A DNA stretch of 38,229 nt from a virus. The stretch spans positions 1 through 38,229 of the IMG/VR virus record IMGVR_UViG_3300035698_018426. One strand, written 5' to 3'. This document shows, piece by piece, positions 1 through 38,229 of this stretch. Both the position numbers and the translations under genes were made by a program. The notes under the pieces are model-generated. The model was not told the origin of the DNA. It did no database searches and saw nothing but the letters and a program-made list of their open reading frames with translations. The stretch's first letter is position 1; each line of letters opens with the position of its first letter.

Positions 1-1
1 T

Positions 2-127
2 AAGAGAAAAGAAGTAGGGCAATATTGAGATACTCATTACGCAACTTTGAATACTTGGGTTAAACCAGAAGAAAAGAAAGAGAATAATAATAGTTGAGAT
101 ATAAGTGTAGAAGATATTCCTTTTTAA
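2..127 (+). CDS. ssb: Single-stranded DNA-binding protein, C-terminal part (5' truncated)
   Basis: The reading frame is open from the window edge and ends at TAA. With TGA as Gly, the last 41 residues include a core-like stretch with YGDTHYATLNTWVK, a low-complexity Asn/Lys linker and the acidic tip ending VEDIPF. That tip is the hallmark of bacterial and phage SSBs, where it docks partner repair and replication proteins. Only the tail and the end of the OB fold are visible, so the call rests on the tip and linker. Its natural partners, an annealing protein and an exonuclease, lie near 29-31 kb. Two TGA codons are read through. Confidence 0.7.
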
Positions 128-135
128 AAACAATT

Positions 136-339
136 ATGGAAACAATTATGGAAATATGAATTTTTATACTTGCAATAGCTGTTACATTTTGGACAGTCGT
201 ATTGCTTTTGAAAGAGATTATTGCATTGCAGGGGGGAGCAAAATTTAGCTCAATGATACCGGAGATAATTCAAATTATCCTGGGAGCGTTTATTGCTTAC
301 ATATTATGGCACTTCTTGTGATATATGATTTATACATAA
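136..339 (+). CDS. Small membrane protein (67 aa)
   Basis: The ATG sits 8 bp after the SSB stop behind the leader AACAATT; an in-frame ATG at 148 is an alternative. Two hydrophobic stretches are visible, around residues 8-25 and 46-63, joined by a short polar loop, so a two-span inner-membrane hairpin is likely. Two TGA codons are read as Gly. It is the last gene before a strong terminator, so it probably belongs to the SSB transcript. A holin-like or membrane-remodelling role is possible from size and topology, but no family motif is recognised. Confidence 0.55.
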
Positions 340-363
340 ACCGACACAACTAGAACATCACTA

Positions 364-392
364 AAACATTACTCATCAGTAGTGTTTTTTTT
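364..392 (+). terminator. Rho-independent terminator
   Basis: A 10-bp stem (364-373 with 378-387, one G-T pair) closes a CATC loop and runs into a T-tract. It ends the transcription unit of the SSB and the small membrane protein and separates it from the packaging module. Confidence 0.8.
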
Positions 393-394
393 AT

Positions 395-422
395 TTGTTT
401 TTTACCTGGTTTTTATTACACT
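395..422 (+). promoter_or_regulatory. Candidate sigma70-type promoter of the packaging operon
   Basis: TTGTTT and TACACT are 16 bp apart, the same spacing as the better promoters in this window. The site lies just after a terminator and 57 bp before the first packaging gene. An imperfect palindrome follows (ATGTAAA, six bases, TTTACAT, about 427-446) and could be an operator. The match to consensus is moderate. Confidence 0.35.
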
Positions 423-478
423 AAAAATGTAAAGAATATTTTACATATACAGCGTATTTGCTGGGAAACATTTTACAC

Positions 479-721
479 ATGATATATACAACCAAAGTAA
501 AAATTGCAGAGGCACTGCATAAAACTCGCCCAACCATTGATAAAATGATTTTGGATTGAGAAATAAAGACCCTATTTACCGACACCGGGAAAAAGGTTGG
601 CTTTGTTGTTGTGATAGATTTTATAGCTTATTTAGTAACAAAAAACACAAATGATGGATTGGTTTTGGGACAGCCCAATAGTAAGAGCAGTGACGAACTT
701 AAAAGCACAGCTGCAGCATAG
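479..721 (+). CDS. Small helix-turn-helix protein (80 aa)
   Basis: The first 30 residues (KVKIAEALHKTRPTIDKMI) look like a helix-turn-helix of the excisionase or small-terminase type, followed by a short beta-hairpin (GEIKTLFTDTGKKVGFVVV) as in a winged helix. It is the first gene after the terminator/promoter at 364-422, so it could be a regulator of the late operon or a DNA-recognition subunit for packaging. One TGA is read as Gly at the turn after the recognition helix. Its last 70 bp overlap the next gene in another frame. Confidence 0.55.
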
Positions 722-833
722 CGAGGTTGATATAAGCAACATAAACGAACACAGAAAAAAGGCAACCAAGAAAAGATTGGCTGCAAGGAAAGCCAGGAAG
801 AAAAAGCAAAAACATTTAAAACGTAACAAATAA
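651..833 (+). CDS. Small basic protein (60 aa)
   Basis: It starts at tandem ATG codons (651 and 654) behind ACACAA, overlaps the preceding HTH gene by about 70 bp and stops 4 bp before the methyltransferase ATG. The N-terminus is aromatic (MMDWFWDSP) and the last 27 residues are almost all Lys, Arg and Ala, suggesting nucleic-acid binding. No TGA is used. The long overlap means one of the two genes could be spurious. Spacing to the next gene and the A-rich leader favour this one being real. Confidence 0.45.
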   Translation: MMDWFWDSPIVRAVTNLKAQLQHSEVDISNINEHRKKATKKRLAARKARKKKQKHLKRNK

Positions 834-837
834 ACAC

Positions 838-2214
838 ATGGAAATTTATAATAACATAGTGACAAATGATTTTATCCCAAGGCTTGAACTGCAGGCGTTC
901 CAGGGCGATTTCAAAGACCATAACAACGCAAAGGAAATTTCAGACCTTGCAGCAAGTATGAGGACAACAAGCTTTACAGACCCGATAAAAGTATGGTACG
1001 AAAACGAGAACTTTATCCTGGACGGACACCAAAGATTGAAAGCATTAAACGAGCTTGCATTATTGGACTTTTACCTGGCTGATGATTTAGTGCCGGTTGT
1101 TTACATAAAAGCAGACACCATTGAGGAAGCAATTAGATGTGTATTTGTTTTTAATAGTAGATATTCAGTTGCAACGGAAGACGGTAAAAAGCAACTATTG
1201 GCAAAAGCCCCTGGGACTGTAAATTTGGATTATATAAGAGGGGTGCAGATTGAGGAAATAACAACAGACGCACTGCAGGAAATAGAAAAAGAGCCGGAAG
1301 AACATAACAACTTGCAAGAAATGTTTGTTGCTCCACCGTTTAGTGTACTTGATACAAAACAAGGGTACTGGCAAACAAGGAAAAGGGAGTGGCTCGGAAT
1401 AGGTATTGAAAGCGAACTTGGGAGAGAGGCAGAATGCTTGCCAACATCATTTTCAGAGGAAAAATATGGTGTAAAACCAAAAACAGGAACATCAGTATTT
1501 GACCCAGTATTGACGGAGATTTGTTATAAATGGTTTTCAATTGCAGAGGGGACAATTTTAGACCCTTTCGCCGGTGGCTCTGTAAGAGGTATTGTTGCAG
1601 CAAAGCTTGGGTTTAATTATGTATGAAATGACCTTAGAAAAGAGCAGGTTGTTGCAAACAGGAAAAACGCAAAGGAAGTTTTAAAAAAGACAGAGTTGCA
1701 ACCAGTTTGGACGCATGGAGATAGTTTGAATATATTAGACCTAGCAAAAGGAACGGAGGCAGATATGCTTTTTAGTTGTCCACCGTATGCAGACCTCGAA
1801 GTTTACAGCGAAGCCAAGGAGGATATATCAAACATGGAATATCCAAAGTTTATGGAAGTATACAGGGAAATTATTGCCAGCAGCTGCCAGCTTTTAAAAG
1901 AAGATAGTTTTGCAGTTTTTGTTGTTGGTGACGTAAGAGATAAAAACGGTATTTACAGGAATTTTGTAAGTGATACAATCGGGGCGTTTAAAGACGCTGG
2001 GCTGCATTTATATAATGAAATTATCTTGGTAAACACGGTTGGGACGCTTGCAATTCGTGCAGGGAGGCAGTTTAATATCGGTCGCAAGGTATGAAAGCAA
2101 CATCAAAACGTTTTAGTGTTTTTCAAATGAAACCCAAAAAACATAAAAGGGAAATTCAGTAAACTAGATTTCTCGGTGTTAGAAAATGACAATGTAGTGG
2201 ACGGAGAAGAATAA
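838..2214 (+). CDS. ParB-domain / DNA methyltransferase fusion (458 aa)
   Basis: The N-terminus (about residues 30-80) is a ParB-like nuclease/N-domain with the LDGHQRLKAL signature. The C-terminal half is an amino-group DNA methyltransferase with an SAM-binding stretch DPFAGGSVRG (242-251), then YVGNDLRKEQ in which the glycine (263) is a TGA codon, and the catalytic CPPY (314-317). Such ParB-methylase fusions are common just upstream of phage terminases and methylate phage DNA, probably against host restriction. Three TGA codons are read through, at 1624, 2092 and in the C-terminal FKGNPK segment. Without recoding the gene would appear as two fragments. Target base and sequence cannot be read from the protein. 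Confidence 0.85.
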
Positions 2215-3645: not shown

Positions 3646-5280
3646 ATGGCAAGAAAGAAACCGGAAATGCTTACATACAAGGAAGTCAAAAGCCTTGAAG
3701 ACTTAAATATAATCGACGAACTAGACGACAAAATGTTTAGAGCGTATTTATGGAGCAAAGGTTTTTACGACTTGGAGTGGTTTACAGACAACTATTTGGC
3801 TCATTACAAGGTTGATAAAAAAACAGGCGTTCCAATAGCAACACCAAAGCTGCACAGGGATATTTGGCAAAGTATAGAGGGACAGGATAGTTTAATTATT
3901 GTTCCTCGTGACCACGCCAAAAGTACAAGTATTTTCTTTTATACAATTTGGAATATATGTTACCAGGTAGACCCGGAAATATTGCTGGTTATGTCAGAGG
4001 CTTTGGGTACTGCAACAATTGGTAAGATAAGAGATGAGTTTGAAGAAAATGCAGACTTGCGTTTTGTGTTTGGGCGTCTTGTGCCAAATAGGAGCAGGAA
4101 AGAAGCCAATAAGCTTTGGACACGTAAGAAACTATCGTTTACCAATGGAACAAAAATTGCATCGCTTTCAAAGGGAACAAGTATGCGTTGATTAAGACCA
4201 ACTTTAATATTGATGGACGACCCCCAGGAGGACGACGATGTAGTAAACAAGGCAACAACAGATAAATTTAATACTTGGTTCTTCAATACGGTTTATAATA
4301 TGCTTGATGACTCGGGGCGTTGTATTGTTGTTTGAACTGTAATTTGACCGTTGTGTTTTGTGCAATATTTAAAACAGGAAGTCAGAGGCTTCAATGTTAT
4401 TGAACATGTTGCAATAAAAAATATTAAAATACAGGAATTAAAGAAAGGAAAACCACATAGAATAAACGGGAAACTTGTAATTGGTGACGGAAGAAAACAT
4501 ATTATTGGTTGAAACCCTCTTTGGGCTGCAAAATGGAGTATTGAGGCACTGGATAGGAGATACCAAAAGTTGCTTACAAAATCCGGTGATGACTCAAACT
4601 TTATGCAGGAATATATGAACGTTCCAATGATATTAAACGGGCGTCCATTCTACCCAAGGAACTTTGTGAACAATATTACACCGTTGCAGCGTTACAAAGT
4701 TGATACTGTATACGAGGACTTGTTTATTTACTGACCTATGGAAAAGGACGGTTTAATTGGTGTTGATGTTGCAGAGGGACTTATTACTGGGGATTTCTCA
4801 GTTATTCGTTTCAGAAGTAGAAAAACAGGGCGTTTGATTGCAAGTTATAGGGGACATATTGACCCGGAGGACTTACCAAAAGTAATTGACCGTATATACC
4901 AGCTGTGAGGAAGTGCAAGGGTTGGTATAGAAAAGAACAACCACGGAGGAACGACAATAAGGTTTTGCCAGGAGTTTCCCTGGTATAATGATTTATATAG
5001 AACAGAGGACATTGATAAAATTACACAAAGGAAAAAACAAACTTACGGTTTTCTTACCAGCAAAAAGAGCAGACCAATTATGCTTGATACACACAAGGAC
5101 TTGATTAAGAACGAGGAAATTGATGTTGACGAACAGTTAAAAGAGGAAATGCTTTATTTCTACCGTAACGAGAAAGGGAAGCCGGAAGCCCTGGCAAATA
5201 GTCACGATGATGTGATAATGGCAGACGCAATCTGTAACGAAATGCAGCCATATTCCATATACTCCGGTGTAAAAGTTTAA
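3646..5280 (+). CDS. terL: Large terminase subunit (544 aa)
   Basis: This is the DNA-packaging motor: an N-terminal ATPase and a C-terminal RNase H-like nuclease. Visible are a Walker A-like PRDHAKST (87-94), Walker B ILMDDP (188-193) directly after RGLRP, where Gly182 is a TGA, and coupling motif VVGTVIGP with two more TGA glycines. The nuclease has Asp374 in GVDVAEG, Glu429 in GIEKNNHGG and the terminal acidic cluster HDDVIMAD (520-527). Length is typical. Under the standard code the gene would stop after 181 residues. Later TGA codons fall at plausible glycines as well. It defines the orientation of the late operon. Confidence 0.95.
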
Positions 5281-5338: not shown

Positions 5339-6694
5339 ATGCCAAAAATAATTCGCAGTGCAGATTTAAACCGTATGAGGGAAATAGAAGCGAACAAGAA
5401 TATAATAAACCTGGATTATTTACTAGACCAGGGGAATGCTTTGACAAACTTTATATCTGACATGTTCTTCAACGGGGACGACACAGAACCAACCGTAAAG
5501 AAAAAAGGACAGGAGAAATTGAAGTTGTTAAACCATACAATCGCTCTGCCGTATAAAATAGCAACAACCAAAGCAAAGTTTTTTGGAAAACCAAACACAA
5601 ATTTGATTGTTGAAAATATAAAAGAGCATGTAATTTCTTATGTATACGGAGGGTTTACAGTTTTTGCAATTGATGAAATGGACGATGACGGAAAGGTTAA
5701 AATAAACCAATACAGCCCGGAACAGTACATACAAGGGATTGAGTTTGATAGTTTGGTTACATACCTGCAGGACGAACAAAATAACAGCTATGCTTTTATT
5801 AAAGAATTTCCAAATGATGACTCGGGTATTGTAAGAAATAAGCTTTATAAAATTACTGGGGACATAAAGGCTGCATTATCGGGTATTATAATTCCTTTGG
5901 ACACATTAGACCAAACAGCACACCTGGAAGACGAGGACAATTTTGGTGTAAAAGAAAAACTTATTTACACGGTGCATGATTATAAACTCAAAGGGGGACA
6001 ATACGGGACGCCTCAACTTGGTATGGTTAAAAGCCTATTAAACCAAATGAACATTGAGCTGGTAAACATAAAAGACCAGTTTATGAAGCATTTACAAGCA
6101 AAACTTGTGCTGCAGGGAATAGACGCAAGTAAAATGAAAAAAGACGAGGAGGGATATATTGATATTAGAGCAGCAGAAGCAATATTTTTGGAAGTTGGAG
6201 CGTCTGCACCAAGTTACATTGAAAACAAAAATGAGCTTTTAAAAGATGTTATTGAAATACTGGATAAATATATTGGTTGGATAGCAACGACATTATCAGT
6301 GCCAAAAGAACTTGTTGGACTTACTGGACAGGTTGGGACGGAAAGCACGGAAAGTAAATTGCTCCGTTTTTCAGACTTTACAAAAGACATTGAGGAAATA
6401 CACGACGGGTTCAGAAAGGTATTTGAGGAAATGTTTGCAGTAGTAACGAAAATTGACAAAGATTATTTAAAAGACCAGGACGAAAAGGGTTTTGGGTATA
6501 TTGCAGAGCCAGTAATGCCAAGGGACGGAACAGCACTTGCAACAGAACTTGCAACAGCAAGACAGGGTGGCTTTTTAAGCAATACAACAGCTGTTAAAAG
6601 ATACACAGAGTACGAGGGGAAAGAATTGGAGGAAGAACTTGCCAGGATAGCAGAGGAGGAAGCAAGGAGCATTGCAAACGTAGATATATTTTAA
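5339..6694 (+). CDS. Portal protein, SPP1 gp6-like family (451 aa)
   Basis: The portal forms the dodecameric ring through which DNA enters and leaves the head. Size, position between terminase and the minor head gene, and the sequence agree with the Gp6-like portal family: a long helical clip/wing region, a conserved segment with LSVPKELVGLTGQVGTESTE around residues 315-340, and a helical C-terminus rich in Glu and Arg. No TGA codon is used in 451 residues although the protein has many glycines. The leader before the ATG is GTAACCT, with no Shine-Dalgarno sequence. Confidence 0.85.
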   Translation: MPKIIRSADLNRMREIEANKNIINLDYLLDQGNALTNFISDMFFNGDDTEPTVKKKGQEKLKLLNHTIALPYKIATTKAKFFGKPNTNLIVENIKEHVISYVYGGFTVFAIDEMDDDGKVKINQYSPEQYIQGIEFDSLVTYLQDEQNNSYAFIKEFPNDDSGIVRNKLYKITGDIKAALSGIIIPLDTLDQTAHLEDEDNFGVKEKLIYTVHDYKLKGGQYGTPQLGMVKSLLNQMNIELVNIKDQFMKHLQAKLVLQGIDASKMKKDEEGYIDIRAAEAIFLEVGASAPSYIENKNELLKDVIEILDKYIGWIATTLSVPKELVGLTGQVGTESTESKLLRFSDFTKDIEEIHDGFRKVFEEMFAVVTKIDKDYLKDQDEKGFGYIAEPVMPRDGTALATELATARQGGFLSNTTAVKRYTEYEGKELEEELARIAEEEARSIANVDIF

Positions 6695-7681: not shown

Positions 7682-8494
7682 ATGGAAAAATTAACCAGGA
7701 AACAATTTTTGGAGCTTATAGCACTATATAAACAAGCCAGGGCGAACATTGCTTTGCAAATGGCTTGATATGACGGTGTAAGGGTGAGGGAAATTGCTTT
7801 GCTGCAAACAGTAGATAAACAAATAAAAATCCTGGATGCAGAAACAACAAAGTTCCTGGAGTGATACGTGCCGAGGGAATATAAAGCAGAATTAAAAGCT
7901 GCAGAAAAAAGCATTGTTGAATTATGAGTGAAAGGGGTGTGAGTTGCAAACCTTACAAAAATTGATACAAAAGCAATTGAGTATATTGTAAGTGATATGA
8001 GCGAAAGGCTTTTAATGTCGGTTCGCCAGGTGCGTCGCTCTGTTGTAAACCATATTTGAAGTGTAAAGCAGGCAAAAATTCGTGAGCTGCTTGCAGTAAA
8101 TACAATTGACGGTCAATGAGTAACGGCAACAGCCAAAGAGGCGTCAAAAATCATGCGTCAAGACGGGATTACTGGTTTTATAAACAAAAGGGGTGCAAGA
8201 TTAAAACTTGATACATACATGAGGCAGCTGGTAAGGAATAGCATACAGGAGGTGCATAACCAGGCAGCATATAACAGGTATTCAGAAGCAGGGATTGAAA
8301 TAGTACAATACTCAACCATTGCAGACGACAAGGTGAGTGATATATGTAGTGCCAGGGAGGGAAAATATTTTTATTTAAACGGTATTACACCACCACCACT
8401 TGGCTCGCATTTTAATTGCAGACATAGGCTAAAACCAAAACTGCCAAAGTTTGTTCCGGCAGGTGTAAAGATACATTTACATTATCCAAATTAA
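7682..8494 (+). CDS. Minor head protein, Mu gpF / SPP1 gp7-like (270 aa)
   Basis: The C-terminal domain has the family pattern: DDKVSDICSAREGKYF, then PPPLGSHFNCRHRLKP, which is the conserved H-x-x-C-R-H end of the Mu F domain. The N-terminal two thirds is helical. Such proteins bind the portal and a few copies enter the head. Six TGA codons, at 7769, 7862, 7925 and later, are read as Gly; none disrupts a motif. The gene is followed by a terminator, closing the portal transcript. Confidence 0.85.
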
Positions 8495-9355: not shown

Positions 9356-10507
9356 ATGACAATTAAAGGAATTTTATACTCAGACCAAGAGGCTCTGACA
9401 CTCGACCCAATGACACTTGCATATTACTCAAATGTCCCTGCGAATAACAGAACGACACTTGACTTACATAGACAAGGTGAAACACTGAATACAACAGAAT
9501 ACAAAACGTACACAAAACCAACAAGAGCGAGAAAAGGGGCTGTTGATGATACAACACCATGGAACGCTTCTGCAACAACTGGGCTTGCAGTTACTCACCA
9601 AACAGCACTTGACCTTGATATAGGTAAAGTATTGCTTATCGGTTCTGAAAAAGTAATTGTAAAAGCAATTGATGTTTCTGCAGATACGATTGAAGTATTT
9701 GCAAGAGGAGCTGGTGGAACAACTGCTGCAATACATGCTGTTGATAGTGAAATACTAATGACAACAGTTGCAGTTCCAGAGGGTCAAAATCTTGGTGCAG
9801 GTTTATTCAATGAAAGAGTTGCTGCAACAAACGGTACTCAAATCATCACAAAACAAGCACAAGTGACTCTGACGGAAGCAAAACAAAGACGTAAACTTCC
9901 GGAGGATTTACTTACTGAAAAAACGCAAGACGAAATGTACGACGCAGTCGAAGACATGAACTATGCGTCAATCGCTGGTTCGTTCCAAGAGGCAGACAGT
10001 GACACTGAAACGCCAGGGATGACAAGAGGTGTTGTTGAAACAATTATTGTTGCTGGTAACGGGAAACTTGTAAACGTTACAAGTGGAGCATTTACGGAAG
10101 CAAGAGTTACTGCAATGCTTCATAATATTTGGCTTGAAAAAGGGAAAGTTGATACAATCATACTTTCACCGGACAACAAAAAAATCGCAAACGGTTTCGG
10201 TAGTTTTGAAAAAAGAGTTGCAGATATTAGAGGAAACAAATTGGGTCAAGAAACAGACGCAATTTCTGCAGAGGGTATTGGTGACGTTTACTTTACTGTA
10301 GACCACTCATTAAGCAATGCAGACGTTGTATACTGTAATTCTGCAGATATGACACAACATTATTTCGAGGGTGACGAATTAAGAGTAATTAATACCTCTG
10401 ACACGACAAACCCAAGACTTATCAGAAATTCTATTATGGGACAATTAGGGTTTAACTACACGAACGTAAATAGAAACTTCGGGCTTGATAGAAACCTTAC
10501 TACATAG
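9356..10507 (+). CDS. Major capsid protein, SU10/DUF5309-like (383 aa)
   Basis: Position after the scaffold, length and sequence fit the DUF5309/SU10 group of HK97-fold capsids, including the segment NERVAATNGTQIITKQAQVT followed by a helix with EAKQRRKLPEDLL. A beta-rich insertion (about 75-135) may be a surface domain. No TGA codon occurs although there are roughly thirty glycines, all GGN. A strong terminator follows, consistent with a very abundant transcript. Confidence 0.85.
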   Translation: MTIKGILYSDQEALTLDPMTLAYYSNVPANNRTTLDLHRQGETLNTTEYKTYTKPTRARKGAVDDTTPWNASATTGLAVTHQTALDLDIGKVLLIGSEKVIVKAIDVSADTIEVFARGAGGTTAAIHAVDSEILMTTVAVPEGQNLGAGLFNERVAATNGTQIITKQAQVTLTEAKQRRKLPEDLLTEKTQDEMYDAVEDMNYASIAGSFQEADSDTETPGMTRGVVETIIVAGNGKLVNVTSGAFTEARVTAMLHNIWLEKGKVDTIILSPDNKKIANGFGSFEKRVADIRGNKLGQETDAISAEGIGDVYFTVDHSLSNADVVYCNSADMTQHYFEGDELRVINTSDTTNPRLIRNSIMGQLGFNYTNVNRNFGLDRNLTT

Positions 10508-11503: not shown

Positions 11504-11836
11504 ATGTGATTTGCAGACGGACTAAAACATACAGCAAATATTTCAACCGTAAGTATTGCAGAGGATAGTTTTTGAAAAGAAACAAAGACCTTTACTGCTT
11601 TATATGAAAATATGAAATGCAGGCTTGGCAAATGAACACCAAGGCAAATAAAAAGCAACGAAAAGGACGAAAAGTTTGTTGTTACATATAAGCTTTATAC
11701 TCTGCCGGAGTATTCTGCAGGTAAGAACGGCGACCAAGTTATAATTGGTGACGACACTTTTATTATATATGGACATAGTGCAGCCGTTGGAGGCGAAACA
11801 AATCATTATATTTATAATATAACAGCTGATGAGTAA
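11504..11836 (+). CDS. Head closure / head-tail joining protein (110 aa)
   Basis: A small beta-rich protein in the head-closure position, starting ATG-TGA (Met-Gly). The sequence alternates short strands (EKFVVTYKLYTL, DQVIIGDDTFIIYG) as expected of a small barrel stopper. Three TGA codons, including the second codon, are Gly. It overlaps the next gene by 8 bp. Confidence 0.5.
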
Positions 11837-12236
11837 AATAGAGCAAGTGGTGCAAAATCTCAACAAAGCAAAAATAAAAATCACCGGCGATTTAGAAAAA
11901 AATGTCGGCGACGCTGGTTTGCATGCAGAGGGAGAAATTGTTGAAAATACTCCAGTTAGTGAAGACGGAGGAACGCTTGCAGACTCTATTATTACAGGAG
12001 AAGTTGAAAAGGTTTGAACAAAAATAGTCGTGGAGGTTGGAACAAACATTGACTATGCAGCACACGTTGAATATGGGGTGACGGCAAAAACTAAAACTTG
12101 AAAAGCCAGGAAAAACCCTTACGATTATCACAAGTGAACAAGAGTTTTTAAAAGTTGAACTGGGGCGTCGATGTTCCGTGATACAATGGACGCACAGCGA
12201 GATAATATTATTGATATAATTAAAAACTGATGATAG
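11829..12236 (+). CDS. HK97 gp10-like tail protein (135 aa)
   Basis: The core VGTNIDYAAHVEYGV is the conserved signature of HK97-gp10 family neck/tail-terminator proteins, and the C-terminal helix SMFRDTMDAQRDNIIDIIK is also typical. The frame ends TGA-TGA-TAG, giving two Gly before the real stop, and overlaps the next ATG inside this end. Six TGA codons in all. Confidence 0.75.
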
Positions 12237-12595: not shown

Positions 12596-13372
12596 ATGAG
12601 TAATATGGACGAAAAGAAACTTGGTACGGTTGCAGGTGACCTCCTAATTTGGAAACTATCTGACCCAGGGAACATAATAAACCTTGGAGGATTAAAAACA
12701 CTTGACGCAACTGTTGATACAGACGCAGAAAGAGTTGAAATTGCAGTACACAACAGAGCAGCCATAACAGGTAACTCACCGTCTGCAATAATCGGGGTTC
12801 AATTCCTGGAAAATATTGATGCAGAAAAAATATCAGTACTTACTGGAGCTGATGTAACAGTTGTTGCAGCATCACCAATAAGCATAACAGGTGAAGCACT
12901 TGGGACTGGTTGGGTTGTTGGACAACCAATTAAACTTGCAAACAAAAATGGTGACGACACTGTTGTTGCTTCAATTGTTGTTGATGCAGACGGTTCTGCA
13001 CTTGCTGCAGGTACTGACTACGAAACATACGTTGCCGACGGTTCAAACGGTGAAAAAGGTGCAACATATATTGTTCCAAAAACTGCACAAGCTGGAGTTT
13101 TAGACGCTGACTATGATTACACGCCAAATTCTTCTGTCACAGTTAGAAACAAAAGAAAATACAGAAACGATGTATTACTTGGAGCAAAAATTGTTACAGA
13201 GGCAGACGCTGACGGGAAAGTGAATACTTACACGCTAGAGTCTTGTATATTTAAAGGACAATATAAAATTTCAGTGATAGACCTTGCAATTGCTGGTGAC
13301 CTTGACGGGACAACTGGTGCTTTGGAACTATCAAGGGGGGCTGATATTGTACATAACATTGAAACGCTTTAA
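12596..13372 (+). CDS. Major tail tube protein (258 aa)
   Basis: It lies between the tail completion gene and the chaperone/tape-measure pair. The protein is beta-rich, with a Gly/Asp/Val-rich inserted domain (about 85-185, Ig-like or tube-decoration in character) and a C-terminal part containing KGQYKISVIDLAIAG. No TGA codon is used despite many glycines, as for capsid and portal. A terminator follows. Confidence 0.75.
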   Translation: MSNMDEKKLGTVAGDLLIWKLSDPGNIINLGGLKTLDATVDTDAERVEIAVHNRAAITGNSPSAIIGVQFLENIDAEKISVLTGADVTVVAASPISITGEALGTGWVVGQPIKLANKNGDDTVVASIVVDADGSALAAGTDYETYVADGSNGEKGATYIVPKTAQAGVLDADYDYTPNSSVTVRNKRKYRNDVLLGAKIVTEADADGKVNTYTLESCIFKGQYKISVIDLAIAGDLDGTTGALELSRGADIVHNIETL

Positions 13373-13437: not shown

Positions 13438-14019
13438 ATGCAAGAATTAATGGTAAAAGAAGCAGTGCTGGAGCTTCCAAAAGGCAAGGAAAAGTTCGTG
13501 TTTACTATAAAGCAAGCCAACTTTGAAAAAATCCTAGAGTTTGATTTTTATATAAAACAGCAAAATAATACAATCGTGCAGCATATATTCGATTTATTGC
13601 ATGGTATGGACAAGGAGTTTACGGAAAAGCATTTTGATAGCATATCCCCGGAAAAGTTTAATGAGGTATATTTATTTTTTATTAAGAATTATTGCACGGG
13701 TTTTTATGATATATCGGAGGAAACCGGAAGCAAAGAACGTAAAGCCGTTGAAAACAAGCCTTTTTCGTCCGTTATAGCGTGAATTGTAACAAACAGCAAT
13801 GAAACTATAGAAAGCTTGTTAAAACTTACCTGGCAGCAAATTATATATCTTTCCGAGGGGCTTGTGTACAATATGAACGAGCAAAGCAAAGACGGGAAAG
13901 CAGAAAATGCAAGAAAACAAGGTAAAAAGGACATAAAGGATTGAAAATATACAGATACAATTGCTGCACTAAAAGCCCAAAGGGAAAAGGTAAATGCAAA
14001 ATTTATTACTAAAAAATAA
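13438..14019 (+). CDS. Tail assembly chaperone (193 aa)
   Basis: Position between tube and tape measure, length and a helical, charged composition match siphovirus tail assembly chaperones, which coat the tape measure during assembly. The N-terminus (VLELPKGKEKFVFTIKQANFEKILEFDF) resembles that family. Two TGA codons (13780, 13942) are read through; I see no clear slippery site, so the usual frameshifted second product may be absent. The ATG touches the preceding terminator. Confidence 0.65.
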
Positions 14020-14023
14020 AAAC

Positions 14024-20620: not shown

Positions 20621-22870
20621 ATGGCACAAATAGTATGATTAATATGAGGTAAAAATAAAACAAAGGATTACCAGTTTGCACAAGCAATGTCCTCTGTTTT
20701 GGAGGCTGGTGTTGAAAATGGTTTATTAGTTACAACAGACAGCATTGCAATTGGAACTGCAATAATTGAGGTTACAAGAACCAGTGGCGAAACATTTAAA
20801 GTTCCGTTTTTCAATACAGAGGTTGTAAGTATTCCAACCCTGGCAAATAAAAAAATATTTGTTGAAATTGGACAAGAAAATATTGATGAGGGAGATATAA
20901 ATAATAATGCTGCAGGCGATAATATTTGAAGCATAAAAGTTGCAGACGATTATCCAGCAGCAAATTTTGTAAAACTTGCAGAAACGAACGGGGCTGGTGC
21001 AATTACAGATAAAAGAGTTTTTATTAAAGTAAAAAAAGAGCTGCTCGACCTAGACGGAGTACTTTGAGATTTAAATATTACTTGAGATATACACGGTGCT
21101 AAAATTTACGGTGACGGTTCAAATTTAACTGGGCTTTCTGCTGAGGTTGATAGCAATAGTAATAATTATATGCTCGGTGTTCCTGGTGTAATTGGGAAAG
21201 GTTTTAGTCTTGTTGATTATGAACAAGTCACTGGAACAGAGGAAAATGTTTTTGGAACTGCAGGACAACCAAAAGTTGGACAATTGTTTTTCTGACAAAA
21301 CAGAGATATTCCATCATTAAATTTAAAAATCAAAAAAAATAATTCTCCAAGTGACGGATTATTTGTTGAAATACAAACAGATAATGCAGGGCTTCCAAGT
21401 GGGACTGTTGTTACAAACGGGACATCAGATACAATTTCATATACTGCATTATCAGCAACAGCACAAATTGAAACATTTACATTTTCTGCAGTTCCATTAA
21501 TTGTAACAGCTGAAAAATACCATTTAGTTTTAAAAAGAACTGGTGCAAATGACGCTGTGAATAATTATACTGTATACAGTGCAGACGCAGACCTTATTGC
21601 TTGATATATGGTTGCAGACACTGGGACTTGGTGAGTTGTTGCAGATGACTTATATTTTAAAATACCTGGTTATAAAATTGCAGTAAAAGGAGGAAATAAC
21701 TTTATAGGGATTTGCCAACTTACATGAGCTGCAGGGGAAATTGTAAAATTCAACACAAGCTATGATGACAACCAAACAGGGTTGTCGGAAAAAGAATATT
21801 ACACATACGATAAAGCAAATTGAGATATAATACCAGGGGGAGATTTTAAAGCTATATCAGAAAATGCAATTGCTTTCAATATCCAAGGAATAAAAGCAGA
21901 TATTACATTTTGAAACGGGAAAGATTGAGAGCTTGTTATTGCAAATGGTGAAACTGTAAACTTAAATTTGAACACCTGGTATAATTTCTCAAGTATTGAT
22001 ATACAAGCATGAGGAACTTTAAGTACAAACGATACTTCTTGAAAGCTGCAAATAAAATGTATATGAAGTTGTACAATTAATGGTGAAATTGATTTAAGAG
22101 GGGCTTGAAATGATTGAGATTTTGTATTATTAGACGGAACACTTGTTGAAACTTGAAATGGTGGTGTTGGTTGAAGTGGTTGAAATTGCTGATATTCAAG
22201 TGCAACTTGAGGAGCTGGTGGAAGTTGATTAAACAGTGCTTACGGTTGAGGTGGTGCTGGTTGATGAAGTGGTGCGTGAAGTGCAAGAGAGTGAGGGGAC
22301 GGTGGTGCTGGTGCAACACCTGCTGGAACTGGTGGTGCTGGTTGAGGAACTGGTGGTGATTGATGAAATGCGTACGGAAGTAATGGAACAAACGGAGCTT
22401 GGACAACCGACTACACTTATTATTCTTGAGCTGCAGGTTGAAATTCTGCTGGTTGAGGTTGAGGTGCATATAGAGATTGAGGTTGAAATGACGCTTGAGG
22501 TGGTTGAGGAGCTGGTGGCGATACTGGTTTAAGTGCATGAAGCCTTGTGCTTTATTCAAAAGTTGTTGTGGGGGCTTGAACTATATTTGCAAACGGGACT
22601 GCTGGTTGAGGTGGTTGAACTGGTTGAAATAGAGGGAGTAACAGAGGTATTTGAGGAGCTGGTTGAGGTTGAGGTGGTTGAGGTGGTTGAGGTGGTTGAG
22701 TTGGGATTATTTATAGCTCAAATCAATATACTTGAACAATAAACACTGCTGCAGGTACTGGGGGAACATGAGGAGCTGGTGGAACTGGTTGAACTAATTG
22801 AGGAGCTGGTGCAAACGGGACTGCTGGTTGAGTTGGGACACAACAATTAATTCGTAATTATTCAATATAA
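20621..22870 (+). CDS. Large tail fibre with Gly-rich C-terminal adhesin domain (749 aa)
   Basis: Residues 1-130 form an attachment-like domain. ITGDIHGAKIYGDGSNLTGL is a typical phage fibre linker. A jelly-roll-like beta region follows (about 200-370), then a beta-helical part (NLNLNTWYNFSSIDIQ ... CTINGEIDLRGAG). From about residue 505 to the end the chain is Gly-rich, again mostly through TGA. The C-terminal region is a second poly-Gly adhesin, longer than that of the preceding gene. A TATACT at 20585-20590 upstream lacks a good -35. Confidence 0.8.
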
Positions 22871-24975: not shown

Positions 24976-24999
24976 TTTTATATTTATAAATTTTTGATT

Positions 25000-25989
25000 A
25001 TGACAAAAGAAGAAAAAATGCTGGAGGCTTTGTATAACACAACAACAGCAAGGGACAGTGAGCCAATGGCTGCAGACATACAGTTTGAAAAGGTGACGGA
25101 GGATATTGATATTGTTTTGCCTGGATATATATTATTAAACGATAATGTTGTTTTAAACCAGGGGGCGACAATGCTTTGTGTTGCCTTTGGTGCTACTGCA
25201 TGAGTAAATGAAAATTTAAACATGCTTTGAAAAAAAGGTGATAAAAACCCAAATGCAAATGCTGGGTATATTAGAGAAAACCTCGACCCGGATATAGATA
25301 AACACGGGACATATATTATAAATGGTGCAAAAGCTGCAAGAAGCCTTGGTTGGATTGAAGCATACACATTTATAAAAACGGTTGAAGATATGCAAAGAGC
25401 AATTGCATTATTTGGGACAATAGCAACTGGAACAAACAAAATTGACTGGGCTGCTTTAAGAGAAAACGACTTTGTTGCAGTGCCTGGAAGTGGTGGAGGA
25501 CATAAAATAAATATTGTCGGATATAACACACTTATTGAAAATGCAGTGTATTCAAAGGACGGCAGAGAGTACAAAGACTATTTTATAGTAGAAAACACCT
25601 GGGGCGATACGTGGGGCGTACAAGGACGTTATTACATACCTTTTGAATATGCAATGGAAATTTTGTTTAACACAAAAGTATCAATGATTGTAAGTGAAAA
25701 GGAAAACCGTAAATATGCAGACGCTGTTGTTGCAAATATTAGAAAAGAAATGGAAGAAAAAAAGGTTACACCTTTCGTTGAAAAATATGCTTTCTTCGAC
25801 CAAGAACAACTTGCAATGGCAGACCAGGAAAACAAAGACCTTTTCCAAGTGCTGCAAAATGCTTTAAAAGAAACAGGATATGAGCCTATATTTAGAACGC
25901 TTATTGGTTTAAATGAAGACAGAACCAATGCAAGAATTTTAATGGAAATTCAAAGTGCAAGAGCGTATGCTAGAAATATGAACAGATAA
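25000..25989 (+). CDS. Papain-like (C1 family) cysteine protease (329 aa)
   Basis: The papain catalytic set is complete: oxyanion Gln54 and Cys60 in NQGATMLCVAFG with the canonical six-residue spacing, His168 in GGHKINIVGY, and Asn199 in ENTWGDTWG followed by GRYYIPF. About 110 further residues form a helical C-terminal domain. No signal peptide or clear propeptide is seen. Two TGA glycines lie just after the active-site helix. C1 proteases are unusual in phages; it could open the host envelope, process virion proteins or act on host proteins. It follows the YiiX-like gene by 24 bp. Confidence 0.85.
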
Positions 25990-29389: not shown

Positions 29390-30037
29390 ATGTCAAAAGA
29401 AGTTGCAGTGCTTACAGACGAGCAAAAAAAAGAAATGGACGCCCAAGTTGCAAGCTATGTGGACAAAGTGTTGTTTAATTCAAAAAGCGTGGAAATATTT
29501 GCAATGCACCAGGCAAACAAGCTGGCGTTTTTACAATACACACGCCCGAGCTGGAAATTAACCAGGAAAATTTGAAGTAAAAAAAATGAGGTGACGAATG
29601 CTTGGGAGGACGAGCTTTGCGATTATATACCAATAAGAAAAATGGAAAGGCTGCTAAACTTTTTGTTCAACTTCAAGTGGGAAAGCAAAATGGTAAAATC
29701 AGATTTCGCAGAGGGGACAAATGCAAAAGGAAAAACAGTTTATAATGCTTTTGTAATAATGGAGTTTACTTGTGAGTTCTTTGGACAAAAGAACATAAAA
29801 ACGGTATCGTGAAGCTGGCAAATGTACGCAAACCCTGCAATAAGTACATTCGCAGTTATCCAGGCTGCAATATCGCAAGCAACAAAGAATTTTGGAAAGC
29901 TGTATTGAATAGGTGCAGACCTCAACGACGATATTGAAGATAGGTTTGCAGAAACAGACAAAAAAGCAGACAGCGACGAAGAAGTAGAGGCAGGAATGGA
30001 CAGTTTAATTGATGATTTTAATAATAACGCAAAATAA
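29390..30037 (+). CDS. Single-strand annealing protein, putative (215 aa)
   Basis: The central SWQMYANPAISTFAVIQAAISQATKNFGKLYGIGADLN has the helix-rich pattern near the C-terminal end of Redbeta/Rad52-type phage annealing proteins (ageing of the Ala- and Lys-rich helix into KNFGKLYGIG). A preceding beta region holds EGTNAKGKTVYNAFVIMEF. The end is acidic (Asp/Glu/Asn). It anneals complementary single strands during phage recombination and replication. Context with DUF1351, exonuclease and SSB is strong; the exact family (Erf, Sak, RecT) is not resolved. Three TGA codons fall at Gly sites. Confidence 0.6.
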
Positions 30038-30040: not shown

Positions 30041-31006
30041 ATGCACAAAGCTTACAATATGGATAAAACAGCACTTGAAATGTATATTGCTGAAAACCAA
30101 ATAAAACAGACAGACGAGTATGCTATAAAAAACAGAGGTTTTATAACAGCGTCAAAACTCAAAGTTTTTAGACTTTCGCCGGAGGATTATTTTATGAGAT
30201 ATATTTTGGAACTGCCTGGCAAGGCTGCAGAAAAAAAATGCTTTAAATTATGAACTGCAGTTGATGACTATATAAGTTATTGAGAGGCGAAGTTTAAAGA
30301 AAAATACTTTTTGCCGGAAAAAAAGATGTTAAAAGCCGACTGGGAGGTGCTTTGTATAGAAAAAGGACTAGATAGCACATGAAGTGCCAAAGAACTTGAA
30401 GCAAGGGCGACAGACGGACTTATTGTTATGACTGGTGCAGACTCTATAAACGTACTTGGTATGATAAACGAGTACAAAAGGCAACCACTGTTTAATTTTG
30501 AGGGAAAGTATGAAACACAAAAAGAGTTCTTGTTTGATTATAAAGGGCTGCAACTTAGAGCAACCCTGGACAGGTTTATGGAAAATGTAGAGGGACAGGA
30601 AAAATGAGAAATAAGAGATATGAAAACAACAGGTAAACTTAAAAAGTTTAATTTTAGTGCAATGGATTATGGTTATGACTTCTCAATGAGTTTTTATAAC
30701 ATACTGGGGACACTTATTTTTGATAAGAACTTTGAGTTGATACTTGATGTAGCGTCTAGCACTTTCCCGTTTGCGTCACAATCAATAAAAATGCCACCGG
30801 AAACAGTTGTTACACAGTGAAAGGAGCAGATTATACCAACACTGAATAAACTTGCTGAAATACAAACAAAATGGGAAGAAACAAAAGACCCAAATGTTTG
30901 GAGAACAGAAATAAAAGAAGAAGCTCAAAGGGAAAACCTTTTTGACTGTGAAATGTACAGCGAAATGGAAACAACAATACAAAAGAATTTTACTTATTTA
31001 CAATAA
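30041..31006 (+). CDS. PD-(D/E)XK exonuclease, RecB/RecE-like (321 aa)
   Basis: Conserved features of phage recombination exonucleases: GTAVDDYIS near residue 70 (first two residues after a TGA Gly), Asp177 in LRATLDRF, and Asp193-x-Lys195 in EIRDMKTTGK, which form the metal-binding site. A helical C-terminal part contains QSIKMPPETVV. It resects double-stranded ends to feed the annealing protein encoded directly upstream (4-bp gap). Five TGA codons are read through, one three residues before the catalytic D-x-K. Confidence 0.8.
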
Positions 31007-32068: not shown

Positions 32069-32896
32069 ATGCACATGAGCGAAAATGAAGTAAAGAAAAA
32101 AATGCCAAGGGATTTCAAAGGGGTTTGGATTACTGCAGAAGTATGGCTGGACAGAAACCTTACATTGCAGGAAAAGTGTTTTTACACGGAGATTGGTAGC
32201 CTGGACAATGAGGAGTGATGTTATGCACAAAATGAGTACTTCGCAGACTTCTTTGATATATCCAAAACCAGGGCTTCCCTGGTAATAAAAAGCTTGTTGG
32301 AAAAGGGATATATTACCTCTTTAATGATTTATAAAGAGGGTACTAAACAAATATTAAAGAGGGTATTAAACATAAGTTATAGACCCTCCTCAACAAAAGT
32401 TAAAGACCCTCCCCTTGGAAAGTTAAAAGATAATAATACAAGTAATAATACAGAGAATAATACAACTAATATATCTCTTGCTCCAGCAAATAAATTTGCT
32501 GCAGACTCGTTTGAGTATTTGGTATGTAAAGACTTCCTGGACGCACATATTGAAAGAAATTCAATGTCAGTGGAAATATTATTGAGGGACAAAACACAAA
32601 ACGAAGTGTTGCAGGAGTGGGCTGATGAGATACGCAAGTTTTTACAATTGGATAACTACCAGGAAACAGAAATAAAATACTTGCTGCAGTTTACATATAC
32701 CAAAGAAATGTGGTTGAGATATGACGATTACAATTTTTGGCAAAAAAATATGCAAAGTATTATGAAGCTTAGAAAAAAGAATAAACACAACATGAGATAC
32801 TTTGAGGTATTTATTGAAAAGTTTAGGGAAAACAAACCAGCGATAAATGCTTACTTGGGGATTACTGAAAAAGATTTATTTGATAAGTGAATTTAA
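32069..32896 (+). CDS. Phage replication initiation / replisome-organiser-like protein (275 aa)
   Basis: The N-terminal 90 residues match the winged-helix domain of phage replication proteins: RDFKGVWITAEVWLDRNLTLQEKCFYTEIGSLDNEE, then GCYAQNEYFADFF, where Gly50 is a TGA, and ISKTRASLVIKSLLEKGYI as recognition helix. A Lys/Asn linker and a helical C-terminal domain (about 140-275) follow, as in proteins that load the host helicase. Leader AACAGGT, first gene of its unit. The pair ATG 32069/32075 leaves two possible starts. Confidence 0.75.
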
Positions 32897-33909: not shown

Positions 33910-34362
33910 ATGGCAAGAAAAACCGTAATGCCCCAGGCAAAAGAAGACCCAATTGAGCTTTCAATATTACAATGGATTGAATACCGTTTGCGTATAAAAG
34001 CAGTATGGAAAAATGACATAAAAGGTTTTTACAGCAAAGCAGCAGACGCATATTTTAAAAATACAAACCCGTATGTTAGGCGTTGAATTTCTGATATTTC
34101 TTTTTTATGCAAATGACAGTTTGTTTGTATTGAAGTAAAACGCCCAAGTGAAATGAAATTTTTTATGCAGCCAATGGAAGAATTAAAATTATGATTTGCC
34201 AGGGCGACAATGACACAAAAAACAACAGCAAAAAAATACGAACACGCAATAGAGCAGCAAACATTTTTAAGACAGATAAGAGAGGAGGGAGGAATTGCTT
34301 TTTTTGCATGTTCTGCAGACATGGTTGAAAAAAAACTAATTACATCGGGGTTTAAAATATAA
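33910..34362 (+). CDS. VRR-NUC type PD-(D/E)XK nuclease (150 aa)
   Basis: Catalytic layout of VRR-NUC nucleases is visible: VRRGISDISFL with Gly59 (TGA) and Asp62, then CIEVKRPSE with Glu75 and Lys77, and a C-terminal helix-strand with EQQTFLRQIREEGGIAFFACS. Stand-alone phage VRR-NUC proteins are Holliday-junction or flap nucleases used in replication and repair. Three TGA codons are read through. Confidence 0.8.
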
Positions 34363-35100: not shown

Positions 35101-35180
35101 AAAAAAAGTTTTGCAATTAAATTAAAAAACTATACAATTCACTTACTTAATAAATAACACAACAGGTATGGCAACAATAA
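35101..35180 (+). repeat. 80-bp promoter-leader repeat, copy 2
   Basis: Differs from 27734-27813 by one base. It carries the same promoter, leader and the first four codons of the next gene. Confidence 0.9.
35111..35138 (+). promoter_or_regulatory. Early promoter, copy 2
   Basis: TTGCAA and TACAAT at 16 bp, identical to copy 1 at 27744-27771. Confidence 0.65.
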
Positions 35181-35404
35181 CAAAAAAAGAAATAACAGCA
35201 GAGGCAAAACAGATAATAAAAGATATATTTCAAATAATGGTTACCTCTCCAATAAAAGAAGAATGGAAAACAGGGTTTGTATTTATTGATAAAAAAATAC
35301 TTGAACTTGAAAATTGAGAAAGAGGATTAAAAATGTTTGCATGGAGAGAAGTTAAAACAATATTAAACGCAAAGTTTGGAAAGAAATTTATTACTAAAAA
35401 ATAA
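35168..35404 (+). CDS. Small early protein (78 aa)
   Basis: Leader AACAGGT. Shares only the first MATI residues (from the DNA repeat) with the 27801 gene; the rest differs, so the repeat is regulatory rather than a gene duplication. Helical, with WKTGFVFIDKKILELENGERGLKMF (one TGA Gly) and a basic end. Function unknown. Confidence 0.55.
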
Positions 35405-36242: not shown

Positions 36243-36452
36243 ATGAATATTGCAAAAATATTCCAGGATAAGCACATTGAAAAAATATGCTGCAACCAAA
36301 AAACAGCCCACGAGATACGCAAAAAGTATTTTAAATATAGAACATTTTGGAAAAGGGAAAAAGTAAATGTTGATGATAAATTGGTTGTAATTATAGACGA
36401 CCCGTACATAAAACTCCAGGATAGGGAGCTATTAATTAAATATAAATATTAA
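36243..36452 (+). CDS. Small basic protein (69 aa)
   Basis: Lys/Arg-rich with CCNQKTAHEIRKKYFKYRTFWKRE and a beta-like end. Follows the previous stop by 3 bp. No TGA. Possible nucleic-acid binder; no family. Confidence 0.5.
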   Translation: MNIAKIFQDKHIEKICCNQKTAHEIRKKYFKYRTFWKREKVNVDDKLVVIIDDPYIKLQDRELLIKYKY

Positions 36453-36453
36453 T

Positions 36454-36705
36454 ATGTGAGAAAAGTTTGCAAGTAAAGAACAGGAGCTGCAGTTTTACTG
36501 TAAAAAGTACGGCGAAGCCCTGGGGATAAAAGACCTATACAAAATATACAAAGCTAAAATTTGGAAAATACAGCACGCCTGGCAACTGAAAGATAAAACA
36601 ACCCTGGCAGAAATTGAAAGCTTTAAACTGGGTATTTCCTACATTGAACAGGGTGCTGACAAATACGAGTTATTACTTGATTTATTTAACAGAACAAATG
36701 GATAA
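36454..36705 (+). CDS. Small helical protein (83 aa)
   Basis: Starts ATG-TGA (Met-Gly). Helical, with several aromatic residues (YCKKYGEALGIKDLYKIYKAKIW). Overlaps the next start by 8 bp. No family. Confidence 0.5.
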
Positions 36706-36925
36706 AATTATAAAAATGCTGCTTGATAGGCAAATTGCTTTAAATTCACAAAATATGTATCTTACAAACGATATGTTACATGAGGAGGAGGAGTTTTGAA
36801 AGGAAGTAAAAACCTGCATGAGTTACAAGGAAGAAGAACTGCAGATAAAATGGAACGACTTTAAAATGTCGCTGCTATGAGCTGTGATTAATTTACTTTT
36901 AAAAATACAAAGATTATGGAAATAG
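36698..36925 (+). CDS. Small protein (75 aa)
   Basis: Overlapping start; helical and acidic with HEEEEFGKEVKTC (Gly = TGA) and a hydrophobic C-terminal stretch. Overlaps the next gene by 10 bp. Two TGA codons. Confidence 0.5.
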
Positions 36926-37062
36926 GAATAAAAAGTAGAAGAAAGTTATGACTATTCGGATTCTATTACTACTCAAGGATAAGAGAAATGATGCCAGACT
37001 GAATTGCTGAATTTAGAACCATAAGGATATATGAAAGAAGGATAGAGAAGATTATCAAATAA
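36916..37062 (+). CDS. Small basic protein (48 aa)
   Basis: Arg/Ile/Tyr-rich (REMMPDGIAEFRTIRIYERR). Codon use changes here to AGA, ATA and TGA, unlike the upstream genes. No family. Confidence 0.45.
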
Positions 37063-37073
37063 TAATAAACATT

Positions 37074-37505
37074 ATGAAACTTAAAGTATGAGACAAAGTG
37101 AGAGTTAGAGAAGGATTGGAGATTGACAAAGAGTATGGAGAATGTAATTATTTTGGACATATGGAATTAGAAAAATGAAAAGAATATACAATAACGCACG
37201 TTGATTATAGTAATTATGAATTAGATAACTGATACGAATACTACACTGATGAAATGGTAGAGTTAGTAGAAGGATCTAAGAAGTTAGAAGAGTTTAAAAA
37301 ATGAAATATGGTTCTTGACTTGGATTGACATGAAGTAGAACTTATGTTTGACTATTGAAAAAAAGACAAGTCAGGAGATAGATATGTTGTCCTTGATAAT
37401 TGAAGCCTATACTTTAGACAATCAATTAAACATATACCTATAAAAGAATACACAATGAAAGAACTACAAGAAAAACTAGGCGAATCTTTTAAACTTATTA
37501 AATAA
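37074..37505 (+). CDS. Beta-rich protein with KVGDKVRV motif (143 aa)
   Basis: The opening MKLKVGDKVRVREGLE is typical of small beta-barrel domains, and its Gly is TGA. About seven of thirteen Gly are TGA, a higher share than in the main region. The rest is acidic and beta-rich (YTITHVDYSNYELDNGYEYY). Leader AACATT. Possibly an RNA-binding or host-modulating protein; not identified. Confidence 0.55.
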
Positions 37506-37515
37506 TATAAACATT

Positions 37516-37830
37516 ATGGATACAAATAAAAGAGATGAACTAATAGGAAATATAAAAAGTACACTAGATACACATAGTCATATTGCTTTAGCACTAGATG
37601 CTAGTGAGGCTATTAATGGGCAAGTCTATAATGAAACTGATTTATTAAATGCTACACAAATATTTATGCATATCCTTTGAAATGTATCTATAGGACATTG
37701 AATTAGTAAATGATTTACACAAGAACAGATGATACTTATTGCAGAAGAGATGGGAAAGAATATAAAACAGACAATACAGCTATCGACAGGGATAGATATA
37801 CCAACTTTAGTTAATAAACTATATAAATAA
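37516..37830 (+). CDS. Helical protein (104 aa)
   Basis: Leader AACATT. Mostly helical with HSHIALALDASEAINGQ and a C-terminal EEMGKNIKQTIQLSTGID. Three TGA glycines (GHGISKG). Its stop overlaps the next ATG (TAATG). Not identified. Confidence 0.55.
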
Positions 37831-38066
37831 TGCAAACAACAGAACAACCAAAAGATTATATAATAGGATGAGTAAGTTTAACAATAGGACAGTACACATA
37901 CTATATGCAACTAGATCCTAAGGGTAAGACTAACTTTATCAACACACTAGAATGAGAACACGAGGCTAATGCTCCACTCCCTACTTACTTAGCAGAGGAG
38001 ATAACCAGAGAACAAGCACAATTAATTATAGAAGGAGGAGAGAATGGATTCAAAGGAAGTTTTTAA
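37830..38066 (+). CDS. Small protein (78 aa)
   Basis: Mixed fold with GQYTYYMQLDPKGKTNF and a helical end (EEITREQAQLIIEGG). Two TGA codons. Not identified. Confidence 0.5.
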
Positions 38067-38087
38067 TTAATTAACAATTAACAGATT

Positions 38088-38229
38088 ATGAATGATAAAT
38101 ATGAATTAACAGACAAGACAAGACAATTTAATTGAGTGAAACTATATCAGATAAAAGCTAAGAGAAACTTTTCATATGTATGTAAATGAGAACTGGGAGG
38201 ATGGATAGAAACAGAAGATAATCTAAGTA
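38088..38229 (+). CDS. Beta-helix (hexapeptide-like) protein, N-terminal part (3' truncated)
   Basis: The visible 47 residues, NDKYELTDKTRQFNGVKLYQ then IKAKRNFSYVCKGELGGWIE, match the N-terminus of a phage family of left-handed or polymer-forming beta-helix proteins (typical Lyt-ET-G-L-x-RI ... V-K-GDLGG). Both conserved glycines after FN and CK are TGA codons. The gene runs off the window. Confidence 0.65.

What the first reader, a model, noticed from the sequence alone, without database searches (positions are those of the whole stretch)
1..38229. Whole window is written in a code where TGA is glycine
Nearly all long genes need TGA read as sense, and the recoded position is a conserved Gly in many independent families: terminase RGLRP, methyltransferase YVGNDL, VRR-NUC RRGISD, zinc ribbon CINCG, replication winged helix EGCYA, HNH HHVYFG and beta-helix KGELGG. 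TGG is used separately for Trp. Table 25 is known from Absconditabacteria and Gracilibacteria, so this is a phage of such a host.
Basis: partly seen in the sequence, partly recalled or inferred. Interest (0 to 1): 0.85.

Follow-up and report, generated by a model that had tools for sequence, protein, structure and literature searches.

The report
Phage that reads TGA as glycine
This stretch is a large part of a phage genome in which the usual stop signal TGA spells glycine, a code already known from Absconditabacteria and Gracilibacteria and their phages; new here is a set of nine sister phages that use TGA to very different degrees, avoid it in their most abundant particle proteins, and in three cases also seem to read CGG as tryptophan.

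Summary
With TGA as sense, long reading frames cover 82% of the window, almost all on one strand (44% with standard stops). Against homologues from standard-code phages, TGA columns hold Gly 64 of 90 times, Trp and Cys never. The same test recovers 51 of 51 ordinary codons and picks Gly for TGA by 9 nats over Ala and 24 over Trp. TGG remains Trp. Corrections: portal, major capsid, major tail protein and two other genes contain no TGA, and some of the listed motifs could not be verified.

A tape-measure search found nine relatives, all TGA-sense. Across the group TGA supplies 3-84% of glycine codons. Window TGAs face Gly 72 times, TGA 26, Trp/Cys 0. Capsid and major tail genes are TGA-poor throughout. 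CGA reads as Arg in three relatives including the nearest; CGG reads as Trp in three others. No contig scanned carries a tRNA gene.

TGA=Gly phages are published (PMC10746230), so the window is a new member of a known kind. The host is inferred; no CRISPR spacer test was possible.

The parts
1..38229 (.). virus record read under NCBI table 25 (TGA=Gly)
   Evidence: G000 is a virus record of exactly this length; coding coverage 44% to 82% when TGA is sense; Gly at TGA columns
838..2214 (+). ParB-like/DNA methyltransferase fusion; 3 TGA at aa263, 419, 431
   Evidence: Pfam N6_N4_Mtase 8e-9; 17 homologues: G 17/17, 13/17, 17/17 at the TGA columns
3646..5280 (+). terminase large subunit, 6 TGA
   Evidence: phrog_38 5e-48; aa230 G 2/2, aa182 N/Q
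5339..6694 (+). portal, no TGA (0/30 Gly codons)
   Evidence: phrog_533 1.6e-5; codon counts
7682..8494 (+). minor head protein, 6 TGA
   Evidence: Phage_min_cap2 9e-8; phrog_4611
9356..10507 (+). major capsid protein (SU10-like), no TGA (0/30 Gly codons)
   Evidence: SU10_MCP 6e-25; codon counts
11829..12236 (+). neck/tail-completion protein, 6 TGA and one CGA (aa124)
   Evidence: phrog_5 3e-12; the CGA faces Arg in relative G001
12596..13372 (+). major tail protein, no TGA (0/26 Gly codons)
   Evidence: phrog_807 2e-7; homologues in five relatives also TGA-poor
13994..16975 (+). tape measure protein, 19 TGA (start possibly 14024)
   Evidence: PhageMin_Tail 3e-20; TGA=G gives the best PHROG scores; nine relatives
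16986..17876 (+). distal tail protein (Dit), 10 TGA
   Evidence: phrog_33 50.8 bits with G, 35.8 with W
17883..19691 (+). tail tip/fibre protein, 13 TGA
   Evidence: PHROG tail families; 33% identity to relative G005
19695..20543 (+). glycine-rich fibre protein, 44 TGA of 99 Gly codons
   Evidence: phrog_2295 1e-48 when read with G
20621..22870 (+). fibre protein with glycine-rich C-terminal half, 55 TGA of 166 Gly codons
   Evidence: N-terminal part 34-39% identical to relatives
24994..25989 (+). papain-fold peptidase, 2 TGA
   Evidence: Peptidase_C1 3e-6
29390..30037 (+). conserved protein upstream of the RecE-like nuclease, 3 TGA facing G in G001
   Evidence: 47.5% identity to G001, TGA columns 3/3 G
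30041..31006 (+). exonuclease VIII-like PD-(D/E)XK nuclease, 5 TGA
   Evidence: phrog_412 4e-15
32069..32896 (+). replication initiator (winged helix), 2 TGA; aa50 G in 4/5 homologues
   Evidence: phrog_19658 2e-16
33910..34362 (+). VRR-NUC-like endonuclease, 3 TGA
   Evidence: phrog_93 1.7e-7; the RRgISD Gly not independently verified

Best explanation
The window is a large fragment of a siphovirus-type phage genome written in NCBI table 25: TGA is a glycine codon, and TAA and TAG are the stops. Inferred mechanism: the host, a member of the Absconditabacteria/Gracilibacteria group, lacks the release factor that recognises UGA and has a tRNA-Gly with anticodon UCA, so the phage needs no code-switching genes and carries none that were found. 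UGA seems to be tolerated rather than preferred: selection keeps it out of the most abundant virion proteins, while low-G+C mutation pressure lets it rise elsewhere. In this phage CGG is unused and the rare CGA is probably still Arg, so the code is table 25 rather than the Absconditabacteria code 37. Shown here: the Gly meaning, the related TGA-sense group, no tRNA gene, and TGA-poor capsid and tail genes. Inferred: the host, its tRNA and release factors, and the cause of the avoidance.
For: Reading frames; TGA columns G 64/90, W 0, C 0; likelihood test with 51/51 codon controls; tape-measure and Dit HMM scores best with G (phrog_991 103 vs 86-93 bits; phrog_33 51 vs 36-48); 73 window TGA sites against nine relatives: G 72, TGA 26, W 0, C 0; monophyly of the ten TGA-sense tape measures at 98/100 support; no tRNA in the window or the relatives' contigs scanned; no Shine-Dalgarno 4-mer upstream of 45 starts, with SR1 genomes reported as SD-scarce and lacking CCUCC (PMC10783764); CGA=Arg in the nearest relative G002.
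Against: No CRISPR spacer, prophage or peptide links this phage to a host. The minor head and neck genes barely discriminate (minor head 83.3 bits with G, 83.6 with R; neck 47.8 with G, 47.5 with W). Several TGA columns, mainly in coiled-coil parts of the tape measure, face other residues. Lack of SD sites is shared by some standard-code phages, and shuffles expect only 0.9% because the upstream regions are G-poor. The window's own CGA meaning rests on one aligned site and a sister genome.
Confidence: 0.95

Rival explanations
1. TGA is tryptophan (table 4), as in mycoplasmas and many recoded phages.
For: TGA=Trp is the commonest bacterial and phage TGA reassignment (general knowledge; PMC10746230 mentions code-4 phages).
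Against: No Trp at any of 16 TGA sites against standard-code phages or 73 sites against relatives; likelihood 24 nats worse than Gly; tape-measure and Dit HMM scores fall; glycine-rich fibres would become tryptophan-rich.
Confidence: 0.01
2. Standard code with read-through, frame-shifted or decayed genes, or sequencing error.
For: Portal, capsid and major tail genes are intact under the standard code.
Against: 227 in-frame TGA but no in-frame TAA or TAG in the same 37 genes; TGAs fall on conserved glycines; nine independent contigs show the same pattern.
Confidence: 0.01
3. The code is table 37 (TGA=Gly with CGA and CGG=Trp) and the host is an Absconditabacterium.
For: CGG is absent and CGA rare in frame (0 and 5 of 10,127 codons); three relatives use CGG as Trp; Absconditabacteria are SD-scarce (PMC10783764).
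Against: The nearest relative G002 reads CGA as Arg at 12 sites (R over W by 54 half-bits); the one window CGA with an aligned partner faces Arg; neck HMM 47.8 bits with R, 46.6 with W.
Confidence: 0.2
4. The host uses the standard code and the phage switches the code during infection, like TAG- or TGA-recoded gut phages.
For: Such phages exist (PMC10746230 and its references); capsid, portal and major tail genes are TGA-free.
Against: No suppressor tRNA in the window or in the relatives' contigs scanned; no tRNA synthetase or release factor among the annotated window genes; TGA is present in presumed early (nuclease, replication) as well as late genes; TGA=Gly in bacteria is known only from the Absconditabacteria/Gracilibacteria group.
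Confidence: 0.04

Closest known systems
Code-25 phages and prophages of Absconditabacteria and Gracilibacteria (Liu et al. 2023, PMC10746230)
   Same: TGA-dense genes, coding density much higher under code 25 than code 11, canonical portal/terminase/tail genes.
   Different: The window belongs to a tape-measure group with a wide range of TGA use and TGA-free capsid, portal and major tail genes; the parts of that paper read here do not describe this or CGA/CGG.
UGA-to-glycine code of Gracilibacteria/BD1-5, shown by proteomics (Hanke et al. 2014, PMC4032931) and of SR1 bacteria (Campbell et al. 2013, cited there)
   Same: UGA=Gly with UGG=Trp.
   Different: Those are cellular genomes; this is a phage genome in which no tRNA gene was found.
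Absconditabacteria code with CGA and CGG = Trp (Shulgina and Eddy 2021, PMC8629427)
   Same: CGG=Trp is seen in three relatives of the window; CGG is absent in the window.
   Different: Window and nearest relatives appear to keep CGA=Arg; relative G005 keeps CGG=Arg.
IMGVR_UViG_3300031215_000034 (G002), nearest relative found
   Same: About 11 shared genes, tape measure 48%, gene 23318 70%; TGA=Gly, CGA=Arg.
   Different: TGA supplies 55% of Gly codons (27% in the window); the capsid protein shows no detectable similarity.

Membership tests
NCBI table 25 (TGA=Gly) | TGA occurs inside genes, TAA/TAG terminate | tested here: met
NCBI table 25 (TGA=Gly) | TGA columns are glycine in homologues | tested here: met
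NCBI table 25 (TGA=Gly) | TGG remains Trp | tested here: met
   W 33.5 vs next Y 8.6 nats
NCBI table 25 (TGA=Gly) | CGA and CGG remain Arg | tested here: inconclusive
   CGG absent; one window CGA site faces Arg; nearest relative CGA=Arg
NCBI table 37 (Absconditabacterales: TGA=Gly, CGA=CGG=Trp; table number from own knowledge) | CGA and CGG encode Trp | tested here: inconclusive
   no CGG in the window; the few CGA data favour Arg
Code-25 phage of Absconditabacteria/Gracilibacteria | spacer or prophage link to such a host | not testable with these tools
   no genome of these phyla could be reached; the one genome-contig scan hit only other phyla
Code-25 phage of Absconditabacteria/Gracilibacteria | no code-switching machinery needed | tested here: met
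   no tRNA; window incomplete
Tailed phage (Caudoviricetes), siphovirus-type | terminase, portal, capsid, major tail, tape measure and Dit genes | tested here: met

The most novel reading that the evidence does not exclude
One phage group spans at least two related codes: all ten members read TGA as Gly, but G003, G008 and G009 also read CGG as Trp (five sites, W 11 Y 3 H 2 R 1 E 1; W over R by 14 nats), while G005 keeps CGG=Arg and G002 and G006 keep CGA=Arg. The two kinds are mixed on the tape-measure tree, so phages or their modules appear to have moved between hosts with different sense-codon meanings, and UGA is depleted in the most abundant virion proteins of the members tested.
Probability: 0.65. 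Interest if true: 0.72.

Novelty: new member of a known kind. Interest (0 to 1): 0.5.

Why it matters
TGA=Gly phages are published, so the code itself will not surprise a specialist. The group found from this window makes two open questions testable. First, does a phage follow its host's codon reassignments? TGA supplies 3-84% of glycine codons within one tape-measure lineage, and CGG is read as Trp in some members and Arg in another. Second, is a reassigned stop codon as good as an ordinary codon? UGA is depleted in capsid and major tail genes, which suggests it is read more slowly or less accurately; low-level misreading of UGA was reported by proteomics in Gracilibacteria (PMC4032931).

Tried and rejected
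Terminase, major capsid and tail-tip single-protein scans of viral contigs found no relative. Capsid, portal, VRR-NUC, exonuclease and glycine-rich fibre tblastn found nothing in annotated phages. A tRNA-Gly(UCA) pattern scan of genome contigs, meant to reach host genomes for spacer matching, hit five genomes of other phyla. The DNA pattern GGN-TGA-GGN in viral contigs gave 30 contigs without similarity to the window, mostly reading well under the standard code. The methyltransferase motif KVgKQHQN as a recoded bait gave no hit. L008 looked TGA-sense by coverage but its genes are standard. PDB hits of the methyltransferase were spurious RecA repeats. Freeing TAA also raises coverage, but this is the antisense shadow. 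Rfam gave nothing credible. No long repeat joins the two window ends, so a complete circular or terminally repeated genome is not supported.

Full report
What was checked. The window is one virus record of 38,229 bases. With standard stops, frames of 100 aa or more cover 44% of it and are split between strands; with TGA as sense they cover 82%, 35 of 39 on the plus strand. TAA as sense also gives 81%, but 30 of 39 frames are then on the minus strand, the antisense shadow of the real genes. In 37 genes there are 227 in-frame TGA among 10,127 codons, with TAA (31) and TAG (6) as stops. Five of these genes have no TGA: portal, gene 6713, major capsid, gene 10595 and major tail protein.

What TGA means. 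I translated TGA as unknown and aligned the proteins with standard-code phage homologues. Four families gave usable alignments: methyltransferase, terminase, tape measure and replication initiator. At 16 TGA sites the homologues show G 64 times out of 90, and W and C never. A simple likelihood test in the style of Codetta, one vote per column, recovers all 51 ordinary codons that have at least five columns and gives Gly for TGA, 9.3 nats above Ala, 23.8 above Trp and 23.2 above Cys. TGG is Trp. PHROG scores agree where they discriminate: tape measure phrog_991 103 bits with Gly against 86-93 with Trp, Cys, Arg or Ala; Dit phrog_33 51 against 36-48. The minor head and neck genes barely discriminate.

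Relatives. Terminase, capsid and tail-tip scans found none, but the tape measure found one relative and its two-sequence alignment found eight more plus a standard-code outgroup. All nine are TGA-sense. I read G001 in full, G002, G006, G008 and G009 nearly in full from several pieces, and the others as fragments. TGA supplies 84% of Gly codons in G008 (22% G+C), 55% in G002, 46% in G009, 41% in G004, 27% in the window, 21% in G005, 17% in G003, 8% in G006, 5% in G001 and 3% in G007; the share falls with rising G+C (rho -0.68, p 0.03, n 10). Window TGAs at 73 sites face G 72 times, TGA 26 and W or C never; TGAs of the relatives face window Gly codons 89 times. The ten tape measures form one group at 98/100 support against standard-code tape measures, with the window and G002 as sisters at 98/97. 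The outgroup branches are long, so deeper placement is unsure.

The arginine codons. Absconditabacteria are reported to read CGA and CGG as Trp besides UGA as Gly, and some Gracilibacteria read CGG as Trp (PMC8629427). In the window CGG never occurs in frame and CGA occurs five times. The one window CGA with an aligned partner faces Arg, and HMM scores lean slightly to Arg. In the relatives, CGA reads as Arg in G002 (12 sites), G006 (11) and G005 (6), and CGG as Arg in G005 (4 sites). In G003, G008 and G009, however, CGG falls on Trp columns: five sites, W 11, Y 3, H 2, R 1, E 1, Trp over Arg by 14 nats, including terminase positions that are Trp in several standard-code phages and a G003 site where two relatives have TGG in the same peptide (NFWTKHY). 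HMM scores for G008 and G009 proteins mostly rise with CGG=Trp. The two kinds are intermixed on the tree. This rests on few codons, and I found no report of it for phages in the papers searched.

Which genes avoid TGA. In the window, portal, major capsid and major tail protein use TGA for none of 86 Gly codons, while other genes outside the two glycine-rich fibres use it for 128 of 514 (p 3e-10), and TGA share falls with a C-ending codon bias often linked to expression (rho -0.75, p 5e-5). The capsid and major tail genes of the relatives show the same: 0/18 to 17/29 for major tail proteins and 0/36 to 5/22 for capsid genes, each below its genome's rest, though not each significantly; combined p 6e-18 without the window and without one capsid candidate of unproven identity (identities). 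The correlation with C-ending codons is significant in only three of the ten (window, G001, G006). Selection for speed or accuracy is my inference.

Translation start. None of 45 ATG starts has a Shine-Dalgarno 4-mer within 20 bases upstream, and G is only 5% there. The relatives also have few or none (0-4 per genome). SR1 genomes are listed as SD-scarce without the CCUCC anti-SD (PMC10783764). This fits but is not specific: several standard-code phages also lacked SD sites, and shuffles of the G-poor leaders expect only 0.9%.

Mechanism and host. No tRNA gene was found in the window or in the relatives' contigs scanned (L086, the last piece of G009, was not scanned), so the host presumably supplies the UGA-reading tRNA-Gly. 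Known Gracilibacteria lack prfB (PMC6851277). Together with the known distribution of the code this makes a host of the Absconditabacteria/Gracilibacteria group the best inference, with a CGA=Arg (Gracilibacteria-type) host favoured for the window. No genome of these phyla could be reached, so spacer matching was not done.

Novelty. Code-25 phages and prophages of these bacteria are published (PMC10746230). The window is a new member of a known kind. The graded TGA use, the TGA-poor capsid and tail genes and the CGG=Trp relatives go beyond the papers read here and are the parts worth following.

Noticed in passing
L078 669-2027; L083 3514-4743 (minus strand); L084 2852-3439; L072 6705-7313: Relatives G003, G008 and G009 appear to read CGG as Trp in addition to TGA=Gly.
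   Followed up: yes
27718-27827 and 35085-35194: A 110-base stretch, mostly intergenic, is duplicated at 92% identity upstream of two small genes. It holds promoter-like boxes (TTGCAA, 16 bases, TACAAT) and does not fold better than shuffles.
   Followed up: partly
27795, 28341, 32063, 35162, 35680: The 9-mer ACAGGTATG occurs five times (0.2 expected), each time at a gene start in the right half of the window: a possible non-SD start or early-gene signal.
   Followed up: no
45 gene starts across the window: Leaders are A/T-rich with 5% G and no Shine-Dalgarno sites; T is enriched near -22 and A near -12 and -3.
   Followed up: partly
19695-22870: Two adjacent fibre genes have glycine-rich stretches with 99 TGA codons in total.
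   Followed up: partly
1-127: The window starts inside a reading frame ending in DIPF, like the C-terminal tail of a single-strand binding protein, so the genome is probably cut there.
   Followed up: no
L069 and L070 (G001): A relative with only 35 TGA in about 10,200 codons: a code-25 phage that has hardly taken up the codon.
   Followed up: yes
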